In this document: positions 501-9,169 of the stretch, in pieces
How positions within the stretch are numbered: the first letter of the stretch is position 1
Layout of the letters: every line of letters starts with the position of its first letter
Assembly (NCBI GenBank): GCA_030673965.1
Contig: JAUTCN010000002.1
Coordinates: forward strand, 248,001-312,000
Direction: 5' to 3'
Source: Fusobacterium sp. JB019
Lineage (GTDB): Bacteria; Fusobacteriota; Fusobacteriia; Fusobacteriales; Fusobacteriaceae
DNA: 64,000 nt
Made by a program: the position numbers and the translations under genes
The notes under the pieces: model-generated
The model's input: the letters and a program-made list of their open reading frames with translations, nothing else
Database searches by the model: none
Told to the model about the DNA's origin: nothing

Positions 501-838
501 TAAATTACTTGCGTAATTTGGTATAATTTGTTATTATTATTTTAGTTAGTGTTTTATATGCTATAATATTCATTTTGAACTTTTACAAAAACATATGATT
601 GAGATATTGACAGAAATATAGGAATTGGTGAAATTAATATATGGACAAGATAATAGCTTAAAATATAAAAGCAAAAAAATCTAGTTGGTATCTTTGGTTT
701 GTAAATAGTATTAAAAACATATAAATTCCTAATAAATTTATATTATTTTATGTATATCGATCTACTTTGAGTTTATTATATAACTATTGTAAATGGAAAT
801 ATGCTTAAATATGTAGGATGATGTAAAGAGGAGAAGGA
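501..838. other. Intergenic region upstream of panC
   Basis: This 338-base AT-rich gap holds no convincing gene and no strong terminator hairpin for ogt. An extended -10 element (TGCTATAAT at 559-567) is the best promoter-like match seen. A TTGACA at 607-612 lacks a well-spaced -10. The ribosome binding site of panC (AGAGGAGAAGG) closes the gap. I see no riboswitch-like conserved sequence. The length is unusual for this compact region, so an untranslated leader or a decayed gene is possible. Confidence 0.4.
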
Positions 839-1687
839 ATGAATATCGTTTCAAAAGTTTCAAAAGTAAGAGGTTTAGTAAGAGGTTGGAAAAAAGAAGG
901 ATTATCAGTTGGATTAGTTCCAACTATGGGATATCTTCATGAAGGACATTTAAGTCTTATAAAAAAATGTAGAGAGGAAAACGATTTAGTTGTAGTTTCA
1001 ATTTTCGTTAATCCTACTCAGTTTGGAGAAAATGAAGATTTATCTTCTTATCCAAGAGATTTAAAAGCAGATTCTGCTTTATGTAAATCTGCAGGTGTTG
1101 ATTTAATTTTTAATCCATCACCAGAAGAAATGTATATAGATCCATGTGCTTATGTTAATATTAATGGTTTATCAAAAAATTTATGTGGTAAATCTAGACC
1201 AATTCATTTTAAGGGAGTTTGTACTGTTGTTTCAAAATTATTAAACATAGTTACTCCTGATAAAGCATACTTTGGTGAAAAAGATGCACAACAATTGGCT
1301 ATTATTAAAAAAATGGTAAAAGATCTAAATTTTGATGTAAAAATAGTTGGATGTCCTATTGTTAGAGAAAAGGATAATTTAGCTAAAAGTAGTAGAAATT
1401 TTTATCTTAATGAAGAGGAAAGACAAGCAGCACTTATTTTAAGTAAAGCTCTTGAATTAGGTAAAGATTATTTAAAAAAAGATAATAATGTAAATCATTT
1501 AAAAGAAGTTATTGTTAATAAAATTAATAGTGAACCTCTAGCAAAAATTGACTATGTTGAAGTAGTGGACAGTTTAAATATAGAGCCTGTTTCTGAAATA
1601 AAAAAAGATATTTTAGTTGCTGTGGCTGTATATATTGGAAATACTCGTTTAATAGACAATTTTACATTTAATGGAGGTAAAAGATAA
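839..1687 (+). CDS. panC: Pantothenate synthetase (pantoate--beta-alanine ligase)
   Basis: Condenses pantoate with beta-alanine using ATP to give pantothenate, the CoA precursor, in the cytosol. The 282 residues show the nucleotidyltransferase signature [13 protein letters not shown] near the N-terminus (the HxGH ATP site), the QFGENEDL pantoate segment, and the later GEKDAQQL and KSSRN (KMSKS-like) motifs. Length is normal for PanC. ATG is preceded by AGAGGAGAAGG. The stop codon overlaps the panD start (TAATG), so the two are translationally coupled. No panB or panE is adjacent. Confidence 0.96.
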
Positions 1688-2070
1688 TGGAATTAACAAT
1701 GCTAAAAGGAAAAATACATCGTGCTACAGTGAAACAAGCAGCTCTTGATTACGTTGGAAGTATTACTATTGATGAAGATTTAATGGATGCAAGTGGTATT
1801 ATTGAATATGAAAAAGTTCAAATTTCAGATGTAAATAACGGAAGTAGATTTGAAACTTATGTTATAGCAGGTGAAAGAGGATCTGGTTTAATTTGTTTAA
1901 ATGGATCTGCTGCTAGATGTGTAAGTGTGAATGATAAAATAATTATAATGTGTTATGCTAGTATGTCTGTTGAAGAAGCAAAAGCAGTTAAACCAAAAGT
2001 TGTTTTTGTAGATGAAGAGAATAAAATTAAAAGGGTTACTAGATATGAAAAACACGGACAGTTAGGATAG
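1687..2070 (+). CDS. panD: Aspartate 1-decarboxylase proenzyme
   Basis: Makes beta-alanine from L-aspartate for PanC. It is a pyruvoyl enzyme made as a proenzyme that cleaves itself. The self-cleavage site is visible as YVGSITID, with Gly24-Ser25 exactly where it sits in characterised PanD proteins, which supports this start codon. Ser25 would become the pyruvoyl group. The 127-residue length is standard. The start overlaps the panC stop by one base and panS follows eight bases after the stop, so panC-panD-panS form one operon. Confidence 0.96.
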
Positions 2071-2078
2071 GTGATAAA

Positions 2079-3017
2079 ATGAAAATCTTAGCTGCCTTTA
2101 CTAAAAATGTTGGAAAATTTATGGGATTAATTATAGTTATCATGTCAATAATAGCAATGTTTGAACCTAGTTTTTTTACATGGGCCACTCCATACATAGT
2201 TCCTTTATTAGGGATTGCAATGTTTGGAATGGGACTTACTTTAAGATTAGAAGATTTTAAATTAATTTTATTACGTCCAAGGGATATAATTATAGGAACT
2301 TTAGCACAATTTACTATAATGCCTTTACTTGCTTATGCACTGGCAGTAATATTTAAATTACCTCCAGATTTAGCAATTGGAGTCATATTAGTTGGAACTT
2401 GTCCAGGTGGAACAGCTTCAAATGTTTTAACTTATCTAGCTAAAGGAGATGTATCTCTTTCAGTTGGAATGACAATGTTATCAACTTTATTATCACCTAT
2501 ACTTACTCCATTAATAACTTATTTATTAATTGGAACATGGGTGAAAGTTTCTTTAATAGCAATGGTAATATCAGTATTAAAGATAGTTGCATTACCAATA
2601 TTCTTAGGAATATTAATTAATCATTTATTTTCAAAACAAATAGAAAAGACAAAGGACGTTTTACCTTTAATATCAATTACAACTATAGTTATATTAATTG
2701 GATGTATTATAGGAAATAATTCTTCTAAAATTTTGACTATGGGACTTACTGTAATATTAGTAGTTATATTCCATAATTTACTTGGATTATTACTTGGTTA
2801 CTCAGTTGGAAAAATGTTGAAGTTAGAAGATTATAAAAGTAGTGCTATATCAATTGAAGTTGGAACTCAAAATTCAGGACTAGCAGTTTCTTTAGCAGTT
2901 AGTAATTTTGCAGCAAATCCACTTGCAACAATTCCAGGAGCATTATTTAGTGTCTGGCATAATATTTCAGGGTCATTATTAGCAACATATTTTACAAGAA
3001 AAAAAGAAAAGATTTAA
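2079..3017 (+). CDS. panS: Bile acid:sodium symporter-family transporter, probable pantoate/ketopantoate importer PanS
   Basis: A 312-residue integral membrane protein of the BASS fold with about nine to ten hydrophobic segments. It carries the family signatures GTCPGGTASN (about residues 108-117) and, near the C-terminus, the EVGTQNSGLA motif of the second crossed helix. BASS members import bile acids, pyruvate or pantothenate precursors. One characterised branch, PanS, imports ketopantoate and pantoate. Its place directly behind panC-panD, with no panB or panE, favours that substrate. Substrate choice is inference from context; the fold is secure. Confidence 0.82.
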   Translation: MKILAAFTKNVGKFMGLIIVIMSIIAMFEPSFFTWATPYIVPLLGIAMFGMGLTLRLEDFKLILLRPRDIIIGTLAQFTIMPLLAYALAVIFKLPPDLAIGVILVGTCPGGTASNVLTYLAKGDVSLSVGMTMLSTLLSPILTPLITYLLIGTWVKVSLIAMVISVLKIVALPIFLGILINHLFSKQIEKTKDVLPLISITTIVILIGCIIGNNSSKILTMGLTVILVVIFHNLLGLLLGYSVGKMLKLEDYKSSAISIEVGTQNSGLAVSLAVSNFAANPLATIPGALFSVWHNISGSLLATYFTRKKEKI

Positions 3018-3023
3018 CAACTA

Positions 3024-3056
3024 ACCCTAGTAGATATTAACTACTAGGGTATTTTT
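3024..3056 (+). terminator. Hairpin after panS, before citD-like gene
   Basis: A ten-base perfect stem (ACCCTAGTAG / CTACTAGGGT) with a seven-base loop is followed by a short T-rich tract. It looks like an intrinsic terminator for the pan genes. Only about 16 bases separate it from the next ribosome binding site or start, leaving no space for a promoter, so it probably acts as a partial terminator or processing hairpin. Confidence 0.75.
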
Positions 3057-3075
3057 GTAGAAAAAAGGAGAAGTG

Positions 3076-3339
3076 ATGATAGGAAGTTGTGGAAATGAAA
3101 AAGATTCAGATGCTTTAGTTATTGTAGATTTGAAAAACAAAGGAAGAGATATTGAAATTAATTCAAAACTAAAGGATATGTTTGGAGAATATATGGAAAA
3201 AGCTATAATAGAAATCCTTGATGAAATGAAGATTAAAAATATTAAGGTTATCTTAAAAGATTATGGAGCTTTGGATTTTGTAATCAAAGCTAGAACTAAA
3301 GTTGCTATAAAAAGAGCTTTACAAGGAGGGGATAAATAA
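3076..3339 (+). CDS. Divergent citrate lyase acyl-carrier (gamma) subunit, CitD-like
   Basis: Small 87-residue protein that aligns along its length with citrate lyase gamma subunit: conserved pieces include DIEINS, MFGEYM, KDYGALDFVIKAR. In classical CitD a serine in the ESSD/ESGD segment carries the phosphoribosyl-dephospho-CoA group. Here the matching segment is GNEKDSD, which places Asp at the attachment position and a serine one residue later. Prosthetic-group attachment is therefore doubtful. ATG at 3076 has AAGGAG at a good distance; an in-frame GTG three bases upstream is too close. It overlaps the next gene by one base. Subunit family is likely; activity is uncertain. Confidence 0.75.
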   Translation: MIGSCGNEKDSDALVIVDLKNKGRDIEINSKLKDMFGEYMEKAIIEILDEMKIKNIKVILKDYGALDFVIKARTKVAIKRALQGGDK

Positions 3340-4055
3340 TGATGAGAAGTTTATTAATTTCATCGGTCACTCCAAAAATACTTGCAAATGCTCATTTGTA
3401 TGAAGCAGATTATTTAATATTTGATTTAGATAAGACTATATCTATAGAGGAAAAAGATTCTGCTAGAGAATTACTTGTACAGGCAGTTAAACATATGGAT
3501 TATAATTTAGATAATATTATAATAAATATTAATTTAATTTCATCTGATTATTGGAAGGAAGATATTAAAGATTTATTTGCTGCTGGAATAAGAAATTTTG
3601 GGATATATTTAGAAGAAGAAAAAAATATTAAAGAGATTGATGAATTTTTAAAAGCATTAGAAAATAAATCTAATGTGGAAGAGGGAAGTTCTAAAATTAT
3701 ATATTTTATAGGGAAACCATTTTTAATTATGAATATTCAAAATATAGTTATGAGTACAAATAGAATACTTGCTCTTTCTTTTAACAAAGAGGAGTTTAGA
3801 GGAAAGATAAAAGTAGAAAGACATAAAAATAATGAAGATCTATCTTTAGGTAAAAAAATGTTAGTTATGGGATCAGCACTTAAAGATATTTATTGTATTG
3901 ATAGTCCCTTTGAAGATTTATCTGATGAAGATAATTTTATAAAAGAAATTAAAAATAATATGAATATTGGATTTAATGGAAAAATTTGTTTTCATCCATC
4001 TCAAGTTAGAATAATAAATAACATTTATAAAGATAGTTATTATTATAAGGATTAG
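3339..4055 (+). CDS. Divergent, shortened citrate lyase beta-like protein (CitE/HpcH-aldolase fold)
   Basis: Resembles citrate lyase beta subunit, which normally splits citryl thioester to oxaloacetate and acetyl-carrier. Conserved landmarks are YLIFDL (27-31), EEKDSAR, and GFNGKICFHPSQ near the end. Functional positions differ: the RVN arginine segment reads ININ (62-65), the ESPLG metal glutamate segment reads GKPF (125-128), and the GAED aspartate segment reads NKEE. It is 238 residues against roughly 290-300 in CitE and stops soon after HPSQ, so it lacks the C-terminal lid. The frame is open and coupled to both neighbours, arguing against simple decay. It may be a repurposed or structural subunit. 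Confidence 0.75.
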   Translation: MMRSLLISSVTPKILANAHLYEADYLIFDLDKTISIEEKDSARELLVQAVKHMDYNLDNIIININLISSDYWKEDIKDLFAAGIRNFGIYLEEEKNIKEIDEFLKALENKSNVEEGSSKIIYFIGKPFLIMNIQNIVMSTNRILALSFNKEEFRGKIKVERHKNNEDLSLGKKMLVMGSALKDIYCIDSPFEDLSDEDNFIKEIKNNMNIGFNGKICFHPSQVRIINNIYKDSYYYKD

Positions 4056-4056
4056 T

Positions 4057-5547
4057 ATGAAAGGAGAAAAATTGAAGAATTCTAATGAAATACCCGATTT
4101 TATAAAAGGTTATGGAAAAGTTAAACTTTACACAGAAAATAAAGTTAATGAAAAATCACAGGACAAAGTTTTAAAAAATATAAAAGAAAGTATAATTAAA
4201 AGTAATTTAATAAGTGGGATGACTATTTCCTTTCAAACTAATCATAGAAATAATAATAATATCTTAAATTTAATAATTGAAGAAATTGATAAGTTAGGAA
4301 TAGAAGATATAAATTTAGTTGTTTCTTCCCTTGGAAAAATACACGAGCCTTTAATTAAATATATAAAAAAAGGAGTAATTACAAAAATAAGTACTTCTGG
4401 AATTAGAGGAGAAATAGCAAAGGAAATTTCAATAAATAATATATTAAAAAATCCTGTTATTTTTAGAAGTTCTGGAAATAAAGTTGATTCAGTAATTTCT
4501 GGAAAATTAAAAATAGATGTTGCCTTTTTAATTGCATCATCTTGTGATACAATGGGAAATTCTAATGGTATAGAAGGTAAATCAGCATTTGGTTCAACTG
4601 GTTATTCTATGACTGATATGAAATTTACAAATAAAGTTATTGTGATTACAGATAATATTGTGCCCTTTCCTTTGGAAAAAATTTCAATACCTATGGATTA
4701 TGTAGATTATATAGTTAAGATAAAATCACTGACTATTAATACTAATTTTTTAAATTCTATTAAATTAACTAAAAATCCAAGAGAATTAATAATTGCAGAA
4801 AAAGCTGCAGAAATTCTGATTAAATTAGGATATATTAAAAATGGGTATTCTATTCAACCAGGACCTGGTGGAGCATTTTTAGCAATAAGTAAATATCTTA
4901 AGGAATATATGAAGAAAAATGAAATTAAAGGATCTTTTCTAAGTGGTGGGATTTCTGCTTATTTAGTAAATTTATTAGAAGAGGGATATTTTGAAAATAT
5001 TTTTGATTTACAAAGTTATGATGTTATTTCTGCTAAATCTTTATTAAATAATGAGAAACATATGGAAGTTTCAGATGCTTCCTATGATAGAATTTTATCT
5101 GATTTGGATATAGCAATTGTAAATGCAACAGAAATAGATGTTGATTTTAATATAAATTTATTAACCGGATCAAATGGTGTGATAATGGGAGTTCCTACAG
5201 TGGCCCAAGATATTGCACATACTTCAAAAATTACAATTGCAATGTCTCCAAGCATGAGAAAAAGAATTCCTATAATAACTAAAAAAGTTACAAATACAGT
5301 TATTCCTGGTGAAGATGTTGACATACTAGTAACAGAAAGAGGAATTTGTGTAAATCCTAGGAGAAAAGATTTAATTAAAATTTTAAAGAAAGAAAATATA
5401 AAATTAACTAATATAAAAAAATTATACGAGACAGTTACTAAAATAACAGGAGTACCTAAGAAACCAACTTATACAGAAAATATAGTTGGAGTAATAGAAT
5501 CTTCAGATGGAAAAGTAATTGACATAATAAAACAAGTGAAAAAATAG
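4057..5547 (+). CDS. Divergent citrate lyase alpha-like protein (CitF-like, CoA-transferase fold)
   Basis: At 496 residues it is nearly full length for CitF, which exchanges acetyl for citryl on the acyl carrier. Well-kept segments include TSGIRG, SSCDTMGNSNG (161-171), TKNPREL, QPGPGGA, SGGIS, LQSYD, ATEIDVDFNINLLTGSNGV and VDILVTERGICVNPRR. Two normally conserved regions are changed: HH..R after the SF strand reads QTNHRN (60-65), and the SGGHxDTA loop reads PTVAQDIAHT (380-389). The parallel loss of motifs in all three subunits suggests a common change of substrate or role. The stop lies just before a strong terminator. No citC, citX or citG is nearby. Confidence 0.8.
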   Translation: MKGEKLKNSNEIPDFIKGYGKVKLYTENKVNEKSQDKVLKNIKESIIKSNLISGMTISFQTNHRNNNNILNLIIEEIDKLGIEDINLVVSSLGKIHEPLIKYIKKGVITKISTSGIRGEIAKEISINNILKNPVIFRSSGNKVDSVISGKLKIDVAFLIASSCDTMGNSNGIEGKSAFGSTGYSMTDMKFTNKVIVITDNIVPFPLEKISIPMDYVDYIVKIKSLTINTNFLNSIKLTKNPRELIIAEKAAEILIKLGYIKNGYSIQPGPGGAFLAISKYLKEYMKKNEIKGSFLSGGISAYLVNLLEEGYFENIFDLQSYDVISAKSLLNNEKHMEVSDASYDRILSDLDIAIVNATEIDVDFNINLLTGSNGVIMGVPTVAQDIAHTSKITIAMSPSMRKRIPIITKKVTNTVIPGEDVDILVTERGICVNPRRKDLIKILKKENIKLTNIKKLYETVTKITGVPKKPTYTENIVGVIESSDGKVIDIIKQVKK

Positions 5548-5557
5548 AAATAAAAGA

Positions 5558-5600
5558 AATAAATCTTCCTTAATTTATTAAAAATTAAGGAAGATTTATT
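5558..5600. terminator. Bidirectional terminator between citF-like gene and barrel protein gene
   Basis: A perfect 19-base stem (AATAAATCTTCCTTAATTT and its complement) closes a five-base loop and is flanked by A- and T-rich tracts. The two genes converge on it, so it can end transcription from both sides. Confidence 0.9.
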
Positions 5601-6223
5601 TAAATATTGAAATTATAACCAACAGAAAGAGTTACTCTTTTATAATCATTACTTTCTTTAAAATTAAATAATTTATTATTATATTTAACTTTAATTTTGC
5701 TTCTAGTTATACCATACATTAATTCAACAAAAAAATCATTATATTCTATTCCTCCCCCAAAAGCTGTATATAAACCATTTTCACTACTTGAATCAAGTTT
5801 AAGACTATTAAAACGAAGATCAGAAGAATTAATGTTAAAAGAATATCCAAGATTAGCTTTTAAATATAGAGTTAAATCCTTATAATTAATATTATAGTTT
5901 AAAGTTCCATATATAGGAATAGAATCATATTCCATTCCAAAAGTAGTTAATGTAGGATTGTATTTATAAAATTTTCTGTTATTGTGTTTTTGATAAGAAA
6001 TACCTAATCCAACTTTAAATTTATCATCAATTAACTTAAGTGCTTCAACAGAAAAATCATATGATTTTCCTTCTGTTTCATCAGTAAAATATTTTTGGGT
6101 ACCTATATACTCATATTTTGAGGATAAATCAGTCCCAAATTTCACTGAAATTTGATCTATACATGTTTTTTTAGCAAAGACTGAAGTGGATGTAATTAGT
6201 AAAAATAAAATAATTTTTTTCAT
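5600..6223 (-). CDS. Outer-membrane beta-barrel protein
   Basis: Has a clear Sec signal peptide (MKKIILFLLITSTSVFA, cut after Ala) followed by about 190 residues of alternating polar and aromatic strands such as FKVGLGISYQ, LTLYLKANLGYSF, YTAFGGGIEY and VTLSVGYNFNI. This is the pattern of a small eight-to-ten strand outer-membrane barrel of the OmpA/OmpW-like size class. ATG at 6223 is chosen because GGGAGG lies seven bases upstream; an upstream in-frame ATG has no such site. It shows the organism has an outer membrane. Specific function (porin, adhesin or structural) cannot be read from the sequence. Confidence 0.8.
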   Translation of the reverse strand: MKKIILFLLITSTSVFAKKTCIDQISVKFGTDLSSKYEYIGTQKYFTDETEGKSYDFSVEALKLIDDKFKVGLGISYQKHNNRKFYKYNPTLTTFGMEYDSIPIYGTLNYNINYKDLTLYLKANLGYSFNINSSDLRFNSLKLDSSSENGLYTAFGGGIEYNDFFVELMYGITRSKIKVKYNNKLFNFKESNDYKRVTLSVGYNFNI

Positions 6224-6273
6224 AACAAAACCTCCCATCATCTTTAAAAATAAGAAATTAAATCTACACTATA

Positions 6274-6302
6274 GTTATACAACATAAAAAAGTTAAAGGC
6301 AA
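6274..6302 (-). promoter_or_regulatory. Promoter of the barrel protein gene
   Basis: On the minus strand TTGCCT, a 17-base spacer and TATAAC form a sigma-70-like promoter about 50 bases ahead of the barrel gene start. Spacing is ideal; the -35 box is only moderately close to consensus. Confidence 0.6.
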
Positions 6303-6331
6303 GTTTTATATTTATTAATATTTATAAAATG

Positions 6332-7498
6332 TTATTTTATAAAATATTTATTTCTATTCTTATATTTCTGACTTCCTAAAAGTCCAAATTCTGAAAATTT
6401 TAAAACAAAGGAACGAATAGTTGCATAGGCAGCATTTCCAAAAGTTTTTTCTAATTCTTTTGTTGTAAATTCATTCTTTCCATAGTGAGACATAACAAAA
6501 TTCCATAATTCCTTTTCCTTTAAAGTTATTTCCCCTGCATTTAATTTTTCTAAAAATATATCAAAAATATTTTCTTCGTTTCCATTAAATTCTAGTTTAT
6601 TATATACATTTTCTATGAAATAGTTTATAAAAGGGGTCAGATCAATAACTTTTGATAGTTTTTCATTTTCTTCTATAATCTGAAAAGCTTTATAATAGTT
6701 ATTTTTACTTTCATTTATATATTTTGAAAAAGATACAAATAAAGAAGTTGGATATCCTTTTTGAACTAGAAACCATAAATGTAATAATCTTGACATTCTT
6801 CCATTTCCGTCAAAGTAGGGATGAATATATGCTAAATAAAAATGTATCATTATAGATTTTATAAAATCATCTATATTTGATTTAGCATTAATAAATTTTA
6901 TAAATTCATCCATATATTCAGGTAATTTTTCATAAGCTAATCCCTCATGAACTTCTTTTCCTCCAACAACAAATACTTTATCATGACGATAGAAATTGTT
7001 TGGTAAAAGTTTAGATTCATCTTTTAAATAATTGCCAATTGTTAAATCATATAAAATTTTTAAATTTTCTTTGTTTATTTTATTTGTGCTGTCACTTATA
7101 AAATCTAAACCTTTTTTTATTCCCATTATATGATTATCTTTATCATCATGTGTAGCATAACCCTTTAAAACATTTTCAATGTTTTTACGCTCTGAATGAA
7201 TATTTTCTATTTTCAAAGTAGAATAAATTTCCTCATTCATTGCTTTAAATCCATAATTATATTCTGTTAGGTTTGGTTTAATTAGATTTTTTATAGAATT
7301 AATATTTAATGAAACTTTACTTGGTATAAAGACAATATTATTATTTTTAAAATCTTTTAACTTAACTTCATTAAACATTGTCATCTTTAATATATCTACA
7401 CAATTATAAACAGCATCTTTAGAATATTTATATTTTAATTTTTTTAAGTTAAAGAAATCCTTATCATTTATTATATTAAAAAACAAAGTTGTTTCCAT
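6332..7498 (-). CDS. Fic-domain protein with C-terminal winged helix
   Basis: Fic enzymes transfer AMP or other nucleotide groups onto hydroxyl side chains of target proteins. The 388 residues contain the complete active-site motif HPYFDGNGRMSR (226-237, catalytic His226). A TLKIEN segment at 94-99 fits the autoinhibitory (S/T)xxxE(G/N) motif on the N-terminal side, so this looks like a class II, self-restrained Fic. Residues about 325-388 look like a winged helix, seen in Fic proteins that may bind DNA. The gene stands alone, with an operator-like repeat cluster just upstream. No separate antitoxin gene is adjacent. Target unknown. Confidence 0.88.
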   Translation of the reverse strand: METTLFFNIINDKDFFNLKKLKYKYSKDAVYNCVDILKMTMFNEVKLKDFKNNNIVFIPSKVSLNINSIKNLIKPNLTEYNYGFKAMNEEIYSTLKIENIHSERKNIENVLKGYATHDDKDNHIMGIKKGLDFISDSTNKINKENLKILYDLTIGNYLKDESKLLPNNFYRHDKVFVVGGKEVHEGLAYEKLPEYMDEFIKFINAKSNIDDFIKSIMIHFYLAYIHPYFDGNGRMSRLLHLWFLVQKGYPTSLFVSFSKYINESKNNYYKAFQIIEENEKLSKVIDLTPFINYFIENVYNKLEFNGNEENIFDIFLEKLNAGEITLKEKELWNFVMSHYGKNEFTTKELEKTFGNAAYATIRSFVLKFSEFGLLGSQKYKNRNKYFIK

Positions 7499-7514
7499 AG
7501 TTCCCTCCTTATCG

Positions 7515-7546
7515 ACTGATACTAACTGATACCAATATATATCAGT
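7515..7546 (-). promoter_or_regulatory. Operator-like repeats upstream of fic
   Basis: Two direct copies of ACTGATAC (7515-7522 and 7525-7532) lie ten bases apart, one helical turn, and an inverted copy TATCAGT follows at 7540-7546. The cluster sits immediately ahead of the Fic start. A regulator, perhaps the Fic protein's own winged helix, could bind here; this is inference from the repeat geometry. Confidence 0.5.
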
Positions 7547-7651
7547 TTACCATTAATTTATATATTTTTCAAGTAAATTAAAAAGAACTTAATTTCTTAA
7601 GTTCTCTCTAAAGTGATTGACTTTATCTTAAAAGATAGATAATAATATCTT

Positions 7652-8638
7652 TTAATTGTGTTTTAATATAACTCTTCCGATCATTTTTCCTGCAAGCATT
7701 TTATCTACTTCTTCAGAAATTCCATCAAGTCCAACTTCTTTAATTCCTGATTCTAGATTATGACCTTTCCATTCCATAGCTAATTTTTCCCAAACTGCTA
7801 ACCTTTTTTCCATAGGACATTGAACAGAATCAATACCTATAAATCTAACTCCTCTTAAAATAAAAGGATAAACATTTGCATGAGGAATATCTCCACCAGC
7901 AACATTTCCGCAACTAGTTATAGTTCCACCATATTTAAGACTTCTTATTCCAGTTGAAAGAGGATTTCCTCCAACAGTATCAATAATTCCAGCCCATCTT
8001 TGTTTTAATAATGCTTTTCCAGATTGATCATCAATTTCTTCTCTACTAAGAACTCCCTTAGCTCCTAATTCTAAAGCAAATTTTTCTTCCTCTGGATTGT
8101 TTATAGTTGCATAAACATTATATCCTAATTTAGTTAAGAATTTAACTGAATGACTTCCAACTCCTCCAGTTCCTCCTATTACTAAAATATCTCCATCTTC
8201 AGGTTTTGTTTCTCTAATTAATTCAAAAACTGATAATGCAGAAGTGAAACCAGCAGTTCCATAAATAACAGCTTCTTTTAATGATAAAGCTTCTGGTTTT
8301 TTAACAACCCAAGAAGCAGGAACTCTAATATATTCTCCAAATCCTCCATCAGTATTCATTCCTAAATCATAACCTGTAAGGATAACTTCTTCACCTTTTG
8401 TAAATGTATCAACTGTTGAAGATTCAACAATACCAGCTGCATCTATCCCTGGTGTATGAGGAAATTTTCTAGTAACTCCTCTATTTCCAGTACATGATAA
8501 TGCATCTTTATAATTAAGAGATGAGTATTTAACTTTTATAACTACCTCTCCTTCAGGTAAATCATTAATTTCTCTCTCTACTATTTTTCTAATAAATTTT
8601 CCATCTTCTTCAAAAATTCTTAAAGCTTTAAATAACAT
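7652..8638 (-). CDS. AcuI/YhdH-type zinc-free medium-chain reductase
   Basis: NADPH-dependent oxidoreductase of the YhdH/AcuI branch, which reduces acrylyl-CoA or quinone-like enones. It has the GroES-like N-terminal half (SSLNYKDALSCTG, FPHTPGIDAAG), no zinc-binding cysteine cluster, and a Rossmann half with VIGGTGGVGSHSVK. The final GRVILKH is typical. The start at 8638 gives a 328-residue protein and has AGGAGG at the right distance; the longer frame runs through the promoter. The gene has its own consensus promoter and palindrome and lies just after a marR gene on the same strand. Substrate specificity is not certain. Confidence 0.86.
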   Translation of the reverse strand: MLFKALRIFEEDGKFIRKIVEREINDLPEGEVVIKVKYSSLNYKDALSCTGNRGVTRKFPHTPGIDAAGIVESSTVDTFTKGEEVILTGYDLGMNTDGGFGEYIRVPASWVVKKPEALSLKEAVIYGTAGFTSALSVFELIRETKPEDGDILVIGGTGGVGSHSVKFLTKLGYNVYATINNPEEEKFALELGAKGVLSREEIDDQSGKALLKQRWAGIIDTVGGNPLSTGIRSLKYGGTITSCGNVAGGDIPHANVYPFILRGVRFIGIDSVQCPMEKRLAVWEKLAMEWKGHNLESGIKEVGLDGISEEVDKMLAGKMIGRVILKHN

Positions 8639-8660
8639 CGTTCCTCCTAAATTTTTAATT

Positions 8661-8676
8661 AGTACGAAACCGTACT
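8661..8676. promoter_or_regulatory. Palindromic operator in the acuI-like leader
   Basis: AGTACG-AAAC-CGTACT is a perfect inverted repeat with six-base arms. It sits about 15-30 bases downstream of the -10 box, in the transcribed leader, where a bound repressor would block elongation. The adjacent MarR protein is the natural candidate. Confidence 0.55.
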
Positions 8677-8692
8677 TTATTAAGATAAGGTG

Positions 8693-8721
8693 ATTATACA
8701 ATAAAGTATGAAGAATGTCAA
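8693..8721 (-). promoter_or_regulatory. Consensus sigma-70 promoter of the acuI-like gene
   Basis: Minus strand TTGACA, exactly 17 bases, then TATAAT: a perfect match to consensus at both boxes. It lies in the gap between marR and the reductase gene, so the reductase can be transcribed independently of marR. Confidence 0.85.
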
Positions 8722-8734
8722 ATTTTATTTATTA

Positions 8735-9169
8735 TTATTTTTCAAAGTTTCTTTTAACTTTACGAAGTAAGCTAACTAATAACTCTTTTTCTTCATCAGT
8801 AAAATCAAAATATGTTTTAGCTAAAAGATTATCACTTATTTCTTTAAATGATTCTTTAAATTTCCAACCATTCTCAGTAAGAACAATTTCAGTTATTCTA
8901 GCATCTTGTTTATTTTTTTCCTTAGATATATATCCCAATTTTTCTAATTTCTTAACCATATCTGTTATAGTAGATTTCCTTTTCCCTGTTTTACTAACAA
9001 TTTTATTAATTGTTAGTCTTCCTTCATTCATATACAATAAAGAAAATATAGTTCCATGAGAATTTATAATATCTGTAATATTATTTCTTTTTAATTCTTC
9101 ATTAATATATTGACTACTCTTCTCATTAATTGTTGAAATCAAACCTATTATAGTATTTGTACTTTTCAT
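8735..9169 (-). CDS. MarR-family transcriptional regulator
   Basis: A 144-residue winged-helix repressor of the MarR type: dimer helix at the N-terminus, then helix-turn-helix and wing in the segment LTINKIVSKTGKRKSTITDMVKKLEKLGYISKEKNKQDARI, with the DxR wing tip. MarR proteins usually sense phenolic or oxidant ligands. It starts 25 bases after the upstream lipoprotein gene and precedes the acuI-like gene that carries a palindrome in its leader, so that gene is the likely target. Ligand unknown. Confidence 0.88.
   Translation of the reverse strand: MKSTNTIIGLISTINEKSSQYINEELKRNNITDIINSHGTIFSLLYMNEGRLTINKIVSKTGKRKSTITDMVKKLEKLGYISKEKNKQDARITEIVLTENGWKFKESFKEISDNLLAKTYFDFTDEEKELLVSLLRKVKRNFEK

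What the first reader, a model, noticed from the sequence alone, without database searches (positions are those of the whole stretch)
3076..5547. Diverged citrate-lyase-like CitD-CitE-CitF complex with altered catalytic motifs in all three subunits
All three genes are intact, tightly coupled and clearly related to citrate lyase subunits. Yet each lacks hallmark residues: CitD-like has GNEKDSD in place of the ESSD/ESGD serine segment; CitE-like lacks the RVN arginine, the ESPL glutamate and the GAED aspartate, and is about 50 residues short; CitF-like has PTVAQDIAHT in place of SGGHxDTA, and QTNHRN instead of HH..R. Accessory genes citC, citX and citG are absent. Coordinated change without frame damage suggests selection for another reaction or for a carrier or regulatory role, not decay. 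Motif comparison is from my memory of family sequences.
Basis: partly seen in the sequence, partly recalled or inferred. Interest (0 to 1): 0.78.

Follow-up and report, generated by a model that had tools for sequence, protein, structure and literature searches.

The report
Inactive citrate lyase copy under selection
Next to vitamin B5 genes, this Fusobacteriaceae genome keeps a second copy of the citrate-splitting enzyme whose two catalytic subunits have lost their active sites but are still protected by selection, and both its copies belong to a little-noticed class of citrate lyases that appears to work without the family's special attached cofactor.

Summary
The genes are real and in frame at the stated place. 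CitE' has lost every catalytic and metal-binding residue of the CitE superfamily plus its C-terminal lid. CitF' has lost 18 of 84 otherwise near-invariant positions. A sister species shares these losses, keeps both genes under purifying selection (omega 0.06-0.09), but has deleted citD'. So CitE'/CitF' are maintained, probably non-catalytic subunits, not decay. The CitD claim is misread: 'GNEKDSD' is the normal CitD motif of this lineage, and citG/citX/citC are missing from the whole genus, including genomes whose only citrate lyase has intact active sites. Following that lead showed a wider pattern: CitDs lacking the carrier serine occur only where citG is absent (14 of 14 genomes with that type alone) or where a second, classical set exists (10 of 10). 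Classical sets always had citG (27 of 27 genomes). At least three supported, independent transitions are implied. The likely reading is a carrier-less citrate lyase that uses free CoA, of which the window's trio is a fast-evolved pseudoenzyme paralogue. The carrier-less chemistry and the role of CitE'/CitF' are inferred, not shown.

The parts
839..1687 (+). panC, pantoate-beta-alanine ligase; first gene of the block that carries the cit' genes
   Evidence: Pfam PF02569 E 8.5e-112; in the genus only here and in G005
1687..2070 (+). panD, aspartate 1-decarboxylase
   Evidence: TIGR00223 above cut-off
2079..3017 (+). BASS-family transporter, nearest to PanS (ketopantoate/pantoate/pantothenate) but below that model's cut-off
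   Evidence: PF01758 E 4e-48; NF047939 297 bits, cut-off 400
3024..3050 (+). terminator-like hairpin (10-bp stem, then ATTTTTG) between the transporter gene and citD'; absent in G005
   Evidence: (z -3.3); deletion in G005
3076..3339 (+). citD' (gamma-like subunit); GNEKDSD segment normal for the lineage, no classical carrier serine
   Evidence: PF06857 E 2.4e-18; 61-64% identical to lineage CitDs; deleted in G005
3339..4055 (+). citE' (beta-like subunit): TIM barrel without catalytic or metal-binding residues and without the C-terminal lid
   Evidence: PF03328 E 1.1e-26; AlphaFold2 pLDDT 93.6; Foldseek to malyl-CoA lyase/CitE-like structures; omega 0.088
4057..5547 (+). citF' (alpha-like subunit): CitF fold with 18 of 84 near-invariant positions changed, among them HH and GG motifs
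   Evidence: PF04223 457.7 bits; AlphaFold2 pLDDT 89.8; Foldseek to 2hj0/1xr4, TM 0.91; omega 0.057

Best explanation
The trio is a duplicated, very fast-diverged paralogue of the genome's own citrate lyase. CitE' and CitF' are stably folded, selectively maintained pseudo-subunits that no longer cleave or activate citrate (shown at sequence and model level, not biochemically). Most likely they act through binding: by assembling with each other, with CitD' or with the canonical CitD/E/F subunits, and so modulating citrate lyase or CoA-linked acid metabolism in step with the pantothenate genes they lie beside (inferred). The ancestor and the intact copy belong to a class of CitDEF complexes whose CitD lacks the prosthetic-group serine and whose genomes lack citG/citX/citC. 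In these CitD is probably only a structural bridge, and free CoA serves as the acyl carrier (acetyl-CoA + citrate to citryl-CoA + acetate by CitF, then citryl-CoA to acetyl-CoA + oxaloacetate by CitE) (inferred).
For: Own canonical citDEF present. CitF' lies inside the Fusobacteriaceae clade on a stem of 1.41 substitutions per site, against mostly 0.02-0.4 on neighbouring branches, followed by tips of 0.05-0.07. All six CitE catalytic features are lost; PMC3832036 reports the Arg, the Glu/Asp magnesium ligands, the Glu-Asp pair and (with one subgroup exception) the lid Asp as conserved across the CitE-like superfamily. Losses are shared with G005. Purifying selection. Confident folds. Carrier-less class. 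CitD-type subunit as a bridge in malonate decarboxylase: PMC5534430.
Against: No direct evidence of interaction between CitE'/CitF' and any partner. Only two species carry the pair. The dN/dS estimate rests on one species pair whose block has low dS, probably through recombination. A new catalytic activity is not excluded. The catalytic roles of the CitF residues are inferred from conservation.
Confidence: 0.5

Rival explanations
1. Repurposed enzyme: CitF' acts as a CoA or acyl transferase on another acid, perhaps one imported by the neighbouring BASS transporter (pantoate-like), with CitE' as a non-lyase partner.
For: CitF' keeps 66 of 84 near-invariant positions, a confident CoA-transferase-type fold and strong constraint; it is encoded directly downstream of a BASS transporter and panC/panD.
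Against: Invariant HH, GG, His and Arg positions are replaced. CitE' has no metal site. A terminator-like hairpin separates citD' from the transporter gene. No substrate is indicated.
Confidence: 0.25
2. Slowly decaying duplicate with residual constraint.
For: citD' is deleted and the transporter's C-terminus altered in G005; restricted to two species; long stem branch.
Against: omega of 0.06-0.09 in the interval after the active sites were lost, with no stops or frameshifts in citE'/citF'.
Confidence: 0.15
3. Functional citrate or citramalate lyase whose canonical residues sit at shifted positions.
For: Overall family matches are strong.
Against: Alignments are unambiguous around every motif; none reappears nearby, and the lid is missing.
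Confidence: 0.03

Closest known systems
Citrate lyase CitDEF (K. pneumoniae/E. coli type)
   Same: Gene order D-E-F, folds, 457.7-bit CitF match
   Different: CitE' and CitF' lack the active-site residues; the lineage's CitD lacks the carrier serine; citC/citX/citG absent
Canonical citDEF of the same genome (contig C5)
   Same: Closest family; 57% (CitF), 36% (CitE) and 61% (CitD) identical
   Different: Has intact CitE and CitF motifs and the full-length CitE lid; different location, next to a lactate/malate dehydrogenase-like gene
Malyl-CoA lyase and stand-alone CitE-like enzymes
   Same: CitE' model superposes on them; they use free CoA thioesters (PMC3832036)
   Different: CitE' lacks the Arg, Mg ligands and lid Asp that PMC3832036 reports as conserved
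Malonate decarboxylase MdcA/MdcC
   Same: Homologous transferase and carrier; MdcC bridges the complex (PMC5534430)
   Different: MdcC carries the prosthetic group on Ser25; the lineage's CitD has no such conserved serine

Membership tests
Citrate lyase, catalytic (for cit') | CitE Arg, Mg-binding Glu and Asp, Glu-Asp pair, lid Asp | tested here: not met
   All changed or deleted in CitE' of both species
Citrate lyase, catalytic (for cit') | Near-invariant CitF positions (HHH, GGxxD, GGR, others) | tested here: not met
   18 of 84 changed
Citrate lyase, catalytic (for cit') | CitD carrier serine with citG/citX/citC in the genome | tested here: not met
   Serine column is Asp; no citG or citX, citC-family hit is CoaD
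Citrate lyase subunit families (homology only) | Curated family models | tested here: met
   PF04223, PF03328 and PF06857 above cut-off; NCBIfam equivalog cut-offs narrowly missed for CitF and CitD, far missed for CitE
Selectively maintained pseudoenzyme | Catalytic residues lost, fold kept, purifying selection | tested here: met
Carrier-less CitDEF class (proposed here) | Serine-less CitD segment and no citG unless a second classical set exists | tested here: met
Carrier-less CitDEF class (proposed here) | CoA-dependent citrate cleavage without prosthetic group | not testable with these tools
   Needs biochemistry

The most novel reading that the evidence does not exclude
A class of bacterial citrate lyases has dispensed, several times independently, with the hallmark phosphoribosyl-dephospho-CoA prosthetic group: CitD lost its carrier serine, citC/citX/citG were lost, and free CoA carries the acyl groups. 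In two Fusobacteriaceae species a paralogue of such an enzyme has become a conserved, non-catalytic CitE'/CitF' pair tied to the pantothenate genes.
Probability: 0.5. Interest if true: 0.75.

Novelty: new variant of a known kind. Interest (0 to 1): 0.6.

Why it matters
The covalently bound cofactor on CitD is a textbook feature of citrate lyase. A natural class without it would show that the acyl-carrier cycle can be replaced by free CoA, explain why citDEF genes occur without their maturation genes, and correct annotation of these organisms as unable to mature the enzyme. The inactive paralogue would be a rare case of a bacterial metabolic complex with a conserved pseudoenzyme copy.

Tried and rejected
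Shifted canonical residues: rejected. Neutral decay: rejected for citE'/citF' over the testable interval. Conserved three-gene unit: rejected, since G005 lacks citD'. Accessory-gene absence as a mark of this copy: rejected. Riboswitch near the block: no Rfam match. A first named-genome scan with CitF' alone found nothing. No further cit' set in 61 Fusobacteriaceae genomes. Literature searches found no report of serine-less CitD or of a citrate lyase pseudoenzyme, in an open-licence library only. The independent-pairs test has 3-4 pairs, all in one direction, too few for significance; one classical row in that test (L116) had not itself been searched for citG and is left out of the 27 genomes counted here.

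Full report
WHAT IS THERE. The window holds panC (839-1687), panD (1687-2070), a BASS-family transporter nearest to PanS (2079-3017), a terminator-like hairpin (3024-3050), then citD' (3076-3339), citE' (3339-4055) and citF' (4057-5547), all on the + strand. The homologous start of CitD' is the ATG at 3076, not the GTG at 3073. A canonical citDEF lies on another contig of the same 2.27-Mb genome; it appears twice, at both ends of contig C5 in inverted orientation, which is probably an assembly artefact.

CITE' AND CITF' HAVE LOST THEIR ACTIVE SITES. Against 112 canonical sets (88 with classical CitD, 24 without), CitE' has E42D, D43K, R74N, E137G, D164E (own-canonical numbering) and no lid, so the conserved lid segment GKM.D.P with its aspartate is gone. 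A structural study states that the Arg, the two Mg ligands and the Glu-Asp pair are conserved throughout CitE-like enzymes, the lid Asp with one subgroup exception, and that the lid closes the neighbour's active site (PMC3832036). CitF' differs at 18 of 84 near-invariant columns, including H77, H78, G83, D84, H156, G158, R159, G405, G406 and R507. The catalytic role of these CitF residues is inferred from conservation only. AlphaFold2 gives confident folds for both (pLDDT 93.6 and 89.8), matching malyl-CoA lyase/CitE-like structures and CitF structures; these models were built on alignments of canonical homologues, which favours the family fold.

THEY ARE MAINTAINED. Of 61 relatives and of the 61 family genomes held, only one other species, G005 of the same genus, has the set, at the same place. 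It shares the losses. Codon-model estimates for the pair are omega 0.088 (citE') and 0.057 (citF'), rejecting omega = 1 (p = 7e-14 and 2e-38); panC, panD and the transporter give 0.05-0.13, canonical citE/citF 0.016-0.025 (counting method: 0.17 and 0.16). dS of the block (0.12-0.27) is below that of the other genes compared (0.37-1.1), and the panC upstream region is nearly identical, so the block was probably exchanged recently between the species. panC is absent from the other five genomes of the genus, and the transporter from four of them (the fifth has a 46% relative). In a CitF tree the pair sits inside the Fusobacteriaceae clade on a stem of 1.41 substitutions per site followed by short tips (0.05-0.07): rapid change, then constraint.

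CITD' IS NOT PART OF A COORDINATED CHANGE. GNEKDSD is exactly the segment of canonical CitDs in G001, G003, G006, G018 and G027; the window genome's own canonical CitD has GNEKSSD and G005's has GNEKNSD. G005 has deleted citD', the hairpin and the end of the transporter gene, leaving citE' coupled to the transporter frame.

A WIDER PATTERN. The aligned serine of classical CitD (AGT.ES.D; Ser14 as the attachment site is my knowledge, and PMC5534430, gives the equivalent serine in MdcC) is replaced or unconstrained in one Fusobacteriaceae clade and in several other lineages (TDKND, DEKQD, DKPQD, EKKND, ERPQD). No such locus has citC, citX or citG beside it. Whole-genome citG searches: classical sets 27 of 27 genomes positive; genomes with only serine-less CitD 0 of 14 positive (G000, G001, G003, G004, G005, G006, G011, G016, G023, G027 and those of L078, L093, L098, L137; several are drafts or MAGs; one Megasphaera MAG, L103, with a 41-residue fragment was left out). 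Ten genomes with a serine-less CitD do have citG, and each carries a second, serine-bearing CitD set. G011 and G023 share an operon with G054, but G054 has AGTLESSD with citC and a citX/citG gene upstream, whereas G011 and G023 have AGTTDKND and neither gene; the tree nests them within classical sets. The tree needs at least six changes of the trait; three independent pairs on starred branches (four in all) go the same way, too few for a significant sign test. The CitE and CitF motifs remain intact in these sets. G010 has a clade-A CitEF with a serine-bearing CitD (VESND) and citC/citXG in one cluster.

INTERPRETATION. The wider pattern suggests citrate lyases without the prosthetic group, working with free CoA; CitD would stay as a bridge, as MdcC does in malonate decarboxylase (PMC5534430). 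This is inference from gene content. The window's trio descends from such an enzyme and has become a non-lyase. A binding or regulatory role in assemblies is the best guess (about 0.5); a new CoA-linked reaction of CitF' is the main rival (0.25).

LIMITS. Two species only; one pairwise dN/dS; no multimer modelling; organism unnamed; literature search restricted to an open-licence library. No biochemical claim here is tested.

Noticed in passing
G000 contig C5, 1-9899 and 195000-204898 (L052, L053): Both ends of the contig carry the same genes, canonical citDEF included, in inverted orientation; probably an assembly artefact, so the canonical set is likely single-copy.
   Followed up: partly
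window 501-838: Intergenic region upstream of panC is nearly identical between the window genome and G005 although flanking genes have high dS; recent recombination of the block is likely. No Rfam match.
   Followed up: partly
window 3024-3050: Strong terminator-like hairpin between the transporter gene and citD' with only about 20 bases to the citD' ribosome-binding site; how citD'E'F' is transcribed is unclear. G005 lacks the hairpin.
   Followed up: partly
L182 7637-10377, L183 7362-10102, L184 5989-8770: Same oxaloacetate decarboxylase/citDEF operon with and without citC and citX/citG; serine loss in CitD coincides with loss of these genes.
   Followed up: yes
L176 (G010:C19) 3692-8759: Clade-A CitE/CitF with a serine-bearing CitD (VESND), citC and citXG in one cluster: an apparent intermediate between the classes.
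   Followed up: no
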